A DNA stretch of 64,000 bases from Candidatus Mycolicibacterium alkanivorans. Lineage in GTDB: Bacteria; Actinomycetota; Actinomycetes; Mycobacteriales; Mycobacteriaceae. The translations under genes and the position numbers were made by a program. Position 1 is the stretch's first letter. Each line of letters opens with the position of its first letter. This document shows positions 16,909-18,403 of the stretch, one piece after another. Under the pieces are notes generated by a model. The model had not been told where the DNA came from, made no database searches, and saw nothing but the letters and a program-made list of their open reading frames with translations. The stretch lies in the NCBI RefSeq assembly GCF_022760805.1, contig NZ_JAIVFL010000001.1, forward strand, positions 3,985,317-4,049,316, written 5' to 3'.

Positions 16909-18375
16909 TCAGACCACGAACTCCGCGGCACGATGCCCGATCATCGCGATGGTCGCGTGCGGACCGCGGCTGGTGATGCGCGGCAGGATCGAGCCGTCCA
17001 CCACCCACAGCCGCTCGACGCCACGAACCCGGCACCGCGGATCGACCACCGCGTGCTCGTCGCGGTCGGCACCCATCGGGGCGGTAGCGCACAGGTGCTG
17101 GGATGTCGACCACGACGGCTCACCCAGTTGTGTTGTCGCCCCGACGATCTCAGCCGCCAAATCGCAACCCCGCCGCAGGGCGGCCACATCCTCGGGCTCG
17201 CTGTCGTAGCGGTGTTCGATCCGCGGCGGCACTGTCGGGTCGGCGGACACCACCGATACCCGGCCGTGCCCCCGAGGCTGCATGAGCGCGACGCCGAGGT
17301 GCGCCCAATCCGGCCGGCCGGCCGTTCCGTCTCTCACCATGGAGATGAATCCCCCTGTGTAAGGCCGGATCTCGATGGTGCCGTCCACCAACAGCGCCTC
17401 CAACACCGGCCGCCCGGAGGCAACCGTCCAGGTGGTCGGAATCACCCACTCGGGGTGGTCCCAGGTGCGTTGCCCCACCGGCAGATCGACGACAGGCTCG
17501 ATTCCCGACGCGCGCAGCTCCGGCGCCGGCCCGATGCCGGAGAGCATCAGCAGGTGTGCCGATTCGACGGCCCCGGCGCTGAGCACGATCCGATCGGCCG
17601 TCAACTCGCCCGATCCGGTGGGTCCGCTGACCTCGACGCCGACGGCCCGGGTGCCGCTCATCCGAACCCGGGCGACCCTCGTCGCGGTGAGCACCGTGAG
17701 GTTCGGGCGGTTCATGGCGGGCTCCAGGAAGGCCGCCCCGGGTCCGCTGCGTATCCCGTCGACGATGTTCAGCGGCACCGCACCCACACCTGGTGGCGCG
17801 TTGTCCCCGACCGGCTCAGCGTTGAGGTCGGGCAGCCAGCGGAATCCGGCCGCGCGGGCGGCGTCGACGAATGCGGCTGTGCTGCCCGCGAACTCGCTGG
17901 TGCGTCTAATCCGGATGGGACCGCCATCGTGCTGGTGCGGAAAGTCCAGATCGGTCTCGATCGCGCGGTAGTGCCCGGTGACCTCCGACCACGACCAGCC
18001 CGGCAGACCGGGCCCGTCGAAGTCGGCGGGCAGCGCGCGGCAGAAGTATCCCCCGTTTACCGCACCGGAGCCGCCCACGGTGGTGCCGCGAACGATGTCG
18101 GTCGACTGGACGGCATCGCCGGTCAGCAAGGTGCGGTAGCGGCGCACCAGCGGGCTGGCGATCCCGATCGGCAGTTGCAGGCCATCGGCGGTCAGGGTCC
18201 GCACTCCGGGATCGGCCGGGCCCGGACCCGCCTCCACCACCGTCACGCGGCAGGCAGGGTCGGCCGAGAGCCGTTCGGCCAGCACGGATCCGGCGCTGCC
18301 CGCGCCGACGATCAGAACGTCACTGTGGGAGATGAGGCCCGCTCCCCGACTCGACCACCACCGCGCGCATGCCAC
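16909..18375 (-). CDS. mftG: Mycofactocin-associated GMC oxidoreductase MftG
   Basis: 488 residues from GTG 18375. The FAD-binding motif SDVLIVGAGSAGSVLAERL begins about residue 18. GGSGAVNGG and the C-terminal GMC segment (VVDGSILPRITSRGPHAT) are present. MftG is thought to reoxidise mycofactocinol and pass electrons towards the respiratory chain. The first 16 or so residues overlap, in another frame, the mftF remnant. They look like out-of-frame former mftF sequence, so the native start may be lost and the N-terminal tail new. It is the last mft gene, followed by a lipoprotein esterase. Confidence 0.88.
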   Translation of the reverse strand: MACARWWSSRGAGLISHSDVLIVGAGSAGSVLAERLSADPACRVTVVEAGPGPADPGVRTLTADGLQLPIGIASPLVRRYRTLLTGDAVQSTDIVRGTTVGGSGAVNGGYFCRALPADFDGPGLPGWSWSEVTGHYRAIETDLDFPHQHDGGPIRIRRTSEFAGSTAAFVDAARAAGFRWLPDLNAEPVGDNAPPGVGAVPLNIVDGIRSGPGAAFLEPAMNRPNLTVLTATRVARVRMSGTRAVGVEVSGPTGSGELTADRIVLSAGAVESAHLLMLSGIGPAPELRASGIEPVVDLPVGQRTWDHPEWVIPTTWTVASGRPVLEALLVDGTIEIRPYTGGFISMVRDGTAGRPDWAHLGVALMQPRGHGRVSVVSADPTVPPRIEHRYDSEPEDVAALRRGCDLAAEIVGATTQLGEPSWSTSQHLCATAPMGADRDEHAVVDPRCRVRGVERLWVVDGSILPRITSRGPHATIAMIGHRAAEFVV

Positions 18376-18403
18376 GCAGTGACATCACCAGCCGGTAGGT
18401 CAT
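18320..18403 (-). pseudogene. mftF: Remnant of the mycofactocin glycosyltransferase gene mftF
   Basis: In mycobacteria mftF (GT2 family, about 470 residues) lies between mftE and mftG. Here only 27 codons remain: an ATG overlapping the mftE stop (ATGA), then YRLVMSLRGMRAVVVESGS and a stop. By memory this resembles the start of the GT2 domain, RLVTALRGLRVIVVDDGS, with about 11 of 19 positions shared. Both the N-terminal part and the catalytic bulk (DxD region) are gone, so it cannot be functional. It could be chance similarity, but position, overlap and sequence all agree. Confidence 0.55.

What the first reader, a model, noticed from the sequence alone, without database searches (positions are those of the whole stretch)
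18320..18403. Mycofactocin locus with mftF reduced to a fragment
All other biosynthetic genes (mftA-B-C-D-E-G) and mftR are present and look intact, but the glycosyltransferase gene that should lie between mftE and mftG is about 27 codons. The fragment keeps the ATGA overlap with mftE and a piece resembling the beginning of the GT2 domain. Loss of MftF would leave mycofactocin without its oligoglucose chain, unless another glycosyltransferase acts in trans. This is a natural test of whether the glycan is needed.
Basis: partly seen in the sequence, partly recalled or inferred. Interest (0 to 1): 0.75.

Follow-up and report, generated by a model that had tools for sequence, protein, structure and literature searches.

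The report
Foreign gene replaces lost mycofactocin glycosyltransferase
A mycobacterium has lost the sugar-adding gene from its cofactor-making operon, but the same chromosome carries a foreign version of that gene in a gas-oxidation gene island, so the lost step has most likely been taken over rather than abandoned.

Summary
Between mftE and mftG only about 50 nt of mftF remain (18351-18403), a true remnant of the native gene's GT2 region; two deletions removed the rest. The other native genes (mftA, B, C, D, E, G, R) are present.

The inference fails. The same chromosome carries a complete, divergent mftF (here mftF2, 485 aa, 374 bits, cut-off 280) about 697 kb away. It belongs to the MftF type of Nocardia and other actinobacteria, is about 37% identical to native mycobacterial MftF, and keeps the GT2 motifs. 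Its closest named kin are in Ca. Mycobacterium methanotrophicum, SM1 and Bu41, which still keep native mftF. It lies near a second mftA, an NDMA-type methanol dehydrogenase and an sMMO-like operon, between remnants of an SDR-like gene and of a second mftD.

Best reading: a gas-oxidation island brought its own mycofactocin genes, and redundancy was resolved crosswise (native mftF lost, mftF2 kept; native mftD kept, mftD2 lost). Mycofactocin is probably still glycosylated, by MftF2 in trans. Function was not tested.

The parts
18351..18403 (-). remnant of native mftF: start codon overlapping the mftE stop, then about 48 nt from about nt 291-338 of the gene
   Evidence: protein, 0 of 2000 shuffles in each of 5 relatives; DNA, 4 of 4 sisters; 8 of 11
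16909..18375 (-). mftG (GMC dehydrogenase); start codon unresolved (GTG 18375 inside the remnant, or an ATC at about 18333 as database entry P0121 implies)
   Evidence: TIGR03970 638 bits, cut-off 387
18400..19113 (-). mftE (approximate start)
   Evidence: TIGR03964 361 bits, cut-off 172
19167..20360 (-). mftD, native copy (approximate start)
   Evidence: TIGR03966 704 bits, cut-off 471; the only one over cut-off in this genome
20360..21529 (-). mftC
   Evidence: TIGR03962 667 bits, cut-off 265; the only one at E 1e-60 in this genome
21526..21858 (-). mftB (frame as listed; true start probably further in, since it overlaps the end of mftA)
   Evidence: TIGR03967 111 bits, cut-off 33
21843..21938 (-). 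mftA, native precursor peptide ending VSIDGMCGVY
   Evidence: TIGR03969 52 bits, cut-off 25; translation
21977..22639 (+). mftR, TetR regulator
   Evidence: TIGR03968 281 bits, cut-off 225

Best explanation
Replacement of a gene by a foreign relative (xenologous displacement). An ancestor took up a gas/methanol-oxidation island with its own mycofactocin genes of Nocardia-like type (mftA2, an SDR-like gene, mftF2, mftD2) beside an NDMA-type methanol dehydrogenase (MDO) and an sMMO-like operon. With two mycofactocin gene sets present, deletions removed spare parts from both: native mftF went and mftF2 stayed; mftD2 and the SDR-like gene went and native mftD stayed. Native MftA-E now make the redox core and MftF2 adds the glucose chain in trans. 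Shown by sequence: the loss, the remnants, the open mftF2 frame, its foreign ancestry and its neighbourhood. Inferred: that the genes came in one event, that MftF2 is expressed, acts on this mycofactocin and makes the usual glycan.
For: MftF2 over the family cut-off over full length (in one search the family also rang in 14 of 14 control genomes at E 0.001, but over cut-off in 0). 102 residues invariant between 4 MftF2 and 8 native MftF, including D113-D114, D162-S163-D164, E254-D255, W260-R261. Tree: the four MftF2 form one clade (SH-aLRT 100) inside a group with Nocardia, Amycolatopsis, Streptomyces and other actinobacteria (98), apart from native mycobacterial MftF (99). Host and M. methanotrophicum are far apart in the rpoB tree, and the host's MDO is 93-94% identical to that of SM1 and Bu41 but 84-87% to that of its sister G122, so the block moved sideways. 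dN/dS 0.19 for MftF2 of host against M. methanotrophicum. mftA2 scores 43.7 bits, cut-off 25. The mftD2 remnant MNEGWFETVA lies where SM1 and Bu41 have mftD2 starting MSGGWFETVA (0 of 2000 shuffles each). The SDR-like remnant matches the C-terminus of the gene before mftF in 13 of 13 donor-type clusters examined. MDO is TIGR04266, 682 bits, cut-off 625. An mftF lies within 15 kb of mmoX in 6 of 7 genomes with MmoX of 75% identity or more. In M. smegmatis, loss of mftF abolishes glycosylated mycofactocin and the aglycones PMFT/PMFTH2, leaving traces of AHDP (PMC7491314, passages), so mftA-E and mftG without any MftF would be of little use.
Against: No expression or chemical data. MftF2 is only about 37% identical to native MftF, so its product could differ. 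In G306, SM1 and Bu41 MftF2 coexists with native MftF, so it may do something besides replacing it. In M. methanotrophicum no MDO was found in the 36 kb around mftF2, and no SDR-like end precedes mftF2 there or in Bu41, so the make-up of the incoming set is not the same everywhere. The mftD2 remnant is ten codons; its DNA match is 16 of 17 nt in SM1 (E 0.07) and none at that place in Bu41.
Confidence: 0.82

Rival explanations
1. True loss: the organism makes mycofactocin without glycan, and MftF2 is not a mycofactocin glycosyltransferase or is not expressed.
For: Native mftF is gone; MftF2 is divergent (about 37% to native) and 697 kb away.
Against: MftF2 passes the MftF family cut-off and keeps the motifs; its kin in Nocardia-type genomes sit inside mft clusters; low dN/dS; the M. 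smegmatis mutant loses aglycones too.
Confidence: 0.07
2. Two separate pools: MftF2 with MftA2 makes a second, differently glycosylated mycofactocin for the island's dehydrogenase, and native mftF was dispensable for other reasons.
For: mftA2 is open and close to mftF2 and MDO; SM1, Bu41 and M. methanotrophicum keep both MftF types.
Against: The core comes from the C-terminal Val-Tyr, the same in MftA and MftA2, so pools could not be kept apart by precursor; only one MftC (E 1e-60) and one MftD over cut-off were found in this genome.
Confidence: 0.07
3. Assembly or sequencing error at 18320-18403.
For: Only one assembly was seen; no reads available.
Against: The site lies well inside a 4.05 Mb contig; two separate deletions; the remnant has diverged from its relatives as its flanks have (83-91% against 74-81%); the same genome shows matching remnants at the second locus.
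Confidence: 0.03

Closest known systems
MftF, mycofactocin glycosyltransferase (TIGR03965), M. smegmatis
   Same: Family score over cut-off, GT2 motifs, similar length, linkage to an mft gene
   Different: About 37% identical to native mycobacterial MftF, Nocardia-type clade, outside the main mft operon, near an MDO and an sMMO-like operon
mft clusters of Nocardia, Amycolatopsis, Streptomyces and others (commonly B-C-E-SDR-like-F-D)
   Same: Same MftF clade; the SDR-like and mftD2 remnants of the host match this order
   Different: In the host only mftA2 and mftF2 of such a set are left whole
mft genes of Ca. Mycobacterium methanotrophicum (NZ_CP097320.1) and strains SM1, Bu41
   Same: Same MftF2 clade; the native locus also lacks parts (mftD, or mftB-C-D) that have counterparts elsewhere in the genome
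   Different: They keep native mftF; different genes were lost
Herbiconiux sp. L3-i23 (reported in PMC11778925, passages)
   Same: A genome with an incomplete mft gene set (mftD, mftF, possible mftA and mftG kept; B, C, E lost)
   Different: There, as reported, the missing genes have no stated replacement

Membership tests
mftF gene remnant (window) | lies between mftE and mftG with the ATGA overlap | tested here: met
mftF gene remnant (window) | sequence descends from mftF | tested here: met
   8 of 11 relatives
MftF family (mftF2) | NCBIfam TIGR03965 above cut-off over full length | tested here: met
   374.4 bits, cut-off 280, profile 3-465 of 467
MftF family (mftF2) | GT2 motifs shared with native MftF and relation to solved GT2 enzymes | tested here: met
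   a profile of 39 MftF2-type sequences matches GT-A structures, cellulose synthase 4hg6 at E 3.6e-5 among them. Roles of the motifs are recalled. No structure was predicted
MftF family (mftF2) | glucosylates mycofactocin | not testable with these tools
   needs enzyme assay or LC-MS
Xenologous gene displacement | native gene lost, foreign relative present, close kin retain the native gene | tested here: met
Xenologous gene displacement | foreign gene does the native job | not testable with these tools
   inferred from family, dN/dS and the M. smegmatis mutant phenotype
Soluble methane monooxygenase (island) | MmoX-type hydroxylase alpha chain | tested here: met
   616 bits to 1fyz, 75% to the M. 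methanotrophicum gene; but no NCBIfam family at E 1e-10
Soluble methane monooxygenase (island) | further subunits Y, B, Z, C | tested here: inconclusive
   four more genes pair with the M. methanotrophicum operon at 54-73%; the Y candidate matches NF045802 at 309 bits, below its cut-off of 700; B, Z, C named by order and look only
Soluble methane monooxygenase (island) | oxidises methane | not testable with these tools
   MmoX is also 88% identical to that of M. sphagni ENV482, listed with ethane, so methane or ethane is open

The most novel reading that the evidence does not exclude
Mobile gas-oxidation islands in mycobacteria carry their own mycofactocin genes, and these take over from the resident ones. 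The host now runs a hybrid pathway whose glycan is set by a foreign MftF, perhaps a chain different from the mycobacterial one and suited to the island's methanol dehydrogenase.
Probability: 0.2. Interest if true: 0.72.

Novelty: new variant of a known kind. Interest (0 to 1): 0.55.

Why it matters
Mycofactocin genes are usually described as one operon. Here the pathway seems to be assembled from two gene sets of different origin on one chromosome, and relatives show other mixtures (SM1 and Bu41: native mftD absent, foreign-type mftD2 present; M. methanotrophicum: native mftB, C and D absent or decayed, with counterparts elsewhere). That makes part-by-part exchange of this cofactor pathway directly testable. 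It also points to mycofactocin as a likely piece of methane or short-alkane oxidation in mycobacteria. Two paper searches aimed at that link found nothing on it (0 papers; 2 papers, neither on it by title and start of abstract), and the word mycofactocin is absent from the held main text of the MM-1 isolation paper. Supplements and papers not in the library were not seen.

Tried and rejected
Rejected: (1) loss of glycosylation as the default reading, because of MftF2. (2) Common descent of the MftF2 carriers as one species clade: the rpoB tree puts the host with G122 and M. sphagni, and M. methanotrophicum and Bu41 with M. celatum and M. fragae (SM1's rpoB row was not picked up by my script and was dropped, 28 of 29 rows used; one further handle, L109, was not held). 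(3) A natural MftF-MftG fusion in G061, G191, G292 and G319, suggested by long open frames, was not confirmed: a stop lies about 11 codons before the conserved part of mftG. (4) That the remnant holds the only possible mftG start: G122, G061, G191, G292 and G319 also show no usual start in the few codons before it, and the database entry P0121 implies ATC, so the start is left open. (5) Naming the host: probably a methane- or ethane-oxidising Mycobacterium; identity with Ca. M. methanica MM-1 was considered but not shown.

Weak points: in the MftF tree one row (L045) was dropped and several were cut short by my script (for example the mdo-linked copies, 255-261 aa, G025, 246 aa, and G032, 86 aa). 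The link of the MftF2 clade with a Nocardia in particular has SH-aLRT 84 only. The Fisher test (6 of 7 against 8 of 389, p 4e-9) treats related genomes as independent, counts a nearby mftF in one arm and any second mftF in the other, leaves out G011 (two ends of one contig), and includes G300 and G337, whose islands look alike. One of the seven (G318) could not be tested: mmoX lies at the end of an 8.4 kb contig. One search scored only the best 4 candidates per genome. Only 36 handles of those known, two of them repeats, were searched with MftF2 itself. The 40-residue mftA2 stretch gave no NCBIfam family at E 1e-10, although the genome search scored it over cut-off. Names of island genes other than MDO, MmoX, MmoY and the iron alcohol dehydrogenase (acetyl-CoA synthetase, SnoaL-like, MoxR, CoxE, methyltransferase, two-component pair) and the label SDR are my reading of the sequence, not a family search. 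dS near 0.9 makes dN/dS rough. No structure was predicted. Rfam found nothing in the window.

Full report
What is in the window. The mycofactocin operon runs on the minus strand: mftA (about 21843-21938), mftB, mftC, mftD, mftE, a short frame, and mftG, with mftR on the plus strand. The 27-codon frame at 18320-18403 starts in the ATGA overlap with mftE and matches no NCBIfam family by itself.

The fragment is a true remnant. Against native MftF of five relatives it scores 52-77, while the best of 2000 shuffles scored 41-46. At DNA level it matches about nt 291-338 of mftF in four of four sister loci and in 8 of 11 in a second set, which shares two genomes with the first. Two deletions, about 285 nt and about 1.1 kb, removed the rest. 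The gene is lost at this locus.

A full mftF exists elsewhere. The whole-genome search found ten matches, one of them over the MftF cut-off, at C1:3304635-3305987, about 697 kb from the remnant; the other nine are below cut-off. The gene, mftF2, encodes 485 aa without stops. Of 37 genomes of the genus, 34 have a canonical MftF (571 bits or more) and three (host, G025, G032) have only a divergent one (374-392 bits). Of 396 genomes, 386 have an MftF at E 1e-60 or better; among those at least 90% complete and at most 5% contaminated, 360 of 362. The two without (G099, G139) are 3.3 Mb genomes. By best E-value 14 of the 396 have only a weaker match (E 1e-86 to 1e-124), the host among them; at least three of these (G094, G410, G336) are partial matches, so a weak score does not always mean divergence.

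Where mftF2 comes from. Its nearest relatives are in Ca. M. methanotrophicum (73-76%), an unnamed source (69%), Mycobacterium sp. SM1 (65-67%) and MAG Bu41 (63-64%), followed, among the 120 listed, by proteins of Nocardia, Streptomyces, Amycolatopsis and others at 48-56%. SM1 is G107 and Bu41 is G275, by equal contig lengths (an inference). A tree of 48 MftF proteins puts these four together inside a Nocardia/Amycolatopsis/Streptomyces group and away from native mycobacterial MftF. The rpoB tree puts the host with G122 and M. sphagni, not with M. methanotrophicum or Bu41. The island genes agree: the host's MDO is 93-94% identical to that of SM1 and Bu41 but 84-87% to that of G122, and MoxR and CoxE show the same contrast. 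So the block moved between species.

Its neighbourhood. Going outward from mftF2 are an open mftA2 (ending VSIDGMCGVY), a SnoaL-like gene, an NDMA-dependent methanol dehydrogenase (TIGR04266, 682 bits), MoxR, CoxE and methyltransferase genes, a two-component pair, an iron alcohol dehydrogenase (best family below cut-off) and an sMMO-like operon whose MmoX matches solved methane monooxygenase with 616 bits. MmoX found no NCBIfam family at E 1e-10 and the MmoY candidate is below its family's cut-off. On the other side is an acetyl-CoA synthetase. In SM1 and Bu41 the order is MDO, mftF2, mftD2, acetyl-CoA synthetase. In the host, about ten codons of mftD2 remain between mftF2 and the synthetase, and just before mftF2 remains the C-terminal end of an SDR-like gene that precedes mftF in 13 of 13 donor-type clusters examined. 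In M. methanotrophicum the sMMO operon is also near mftF2, but no MDO lies in the 36 kb examined.

Crosswise loss. Host: native A, B, C, D, E, G kept, native F lost; of the foreign set only A2 and F2 remain whole. SM1 and Bu41: native D absent, D2 present, both MftF types present. M. methanotrophicum: at the native locus B is not found, C is cut to its last part and D is in pieces, while A, E, F and G remain; a second locus has B2, C2 and F2 with a damaged A2; a third has A3, B3, C3, D3. Taken together each of the four genomes has at least one copy of A, B, C, D, E, F and G; A, C, D, E and F were sought genome-wide, B and G only in the fetched stretches. The host also has a second, sub-cut-off relative of mftE (147 bits, cut-off 172).

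A wider pattern. MmoX of 75% identity or more occurs in 7 of 396 genomes (G000, G337, G300, G366, G024, G306, G318). In 6 of the 7 an mftF lies 5.6-13.8 kb from mmoX; the seventh, G318, cannot be judged. Five genomes with MmoX at 60-62% show one mftF each. In G122, G009 and G061 a second mftF of another type lies 3.6-7 kb from the methanol dehydrogenase. So gas- and methanol-oxidation regions of mycobacteria hold their own mft genes more than once, and of different types.

Mechanism. In M. smegmatis the mftF mutant loses all glycosylated mycofactocin and also the aglycones PMFT and PMFTH2, with only traces of AHDP (PMC7491314, passages). Native mftA-E and mftG would thus be of little use without an MftF. 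The simplest account is that MftF2 serves the native pathway in trans. Its open frame, conserved motifs and dN/dS of 0.19 fit; expression and product are unknown. The host's substrate is open too: its MmoX is 75% identical to that of M. methanotrophicum but 88% to that of ENV482, which a review lists with ethane (PMC10805244, passages).

Literature. Papers holding both Mycobacterium methanotrophicum and mycofactocin: 0. Papers holding mycofactocin and methane monooxygenase: 2, neither on this subject by title and start of abstract. A search on mycofactocin with horizontal gene transfer, gene cluster and glycosyltransferase listed 3, none on it by title and start of abstract. The MM-1 isolation paper (PMC12366331, abstract and passages) reports an alcohol dehydrogenase in place of a PQQ enzyme and does not use the word mycofactocin in its held main text. 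A commentary (PMC12542659, first of two parts read) says the same of the alcohol dehydrogenase in both methanotrophs. The 2022 M. methanotrophicum paper is not held. PMC11778925 was seen in passages.

Noticed in passing
L157, L158, L184 (Ca. M. methanotrophicum): Three mycofactocin loci in one genome: native with B/C/D missing or decayed, a Nocardia-type one with damaged mftA, and a third with A-B-C-D and broken F and G pieces.
   Followed up: partly
L153, L155 and L154, L156 (SM1, Bu41): Native mftD is absent from an otherwise whole mft operon; the only mftD over cut-off lies beside mftF2 and the methanol dehydrogenase.
   Followed up: partly
L097, L242, L243, L257, L259, L040: sMMO-like islands of several mycobacteria carry their own mft genes.
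   Followed up: partly
L237, L039, L241: A second mftF of another type lies near the methanol dehydrogenase operon in G122, G009 and G061.
   Followed up: partly
L037, L038 (G025, G032): Mycobacterial genomes whose mft locus itself holds a divergent mftF next to mftE.
   Followed up: no
host genome C1:3122679-3125029 and C1:3411573-3413923: Two di-iron monooxygenase places with identical scores for two subunits, as if recently duplicated.
   Followed up: no
window 62945-63994 (-): Transposase (PF21804) at the end of the contig, after a lower-G+C stretch with DUF4012 and Wzz-type genes.
   Followed up: no
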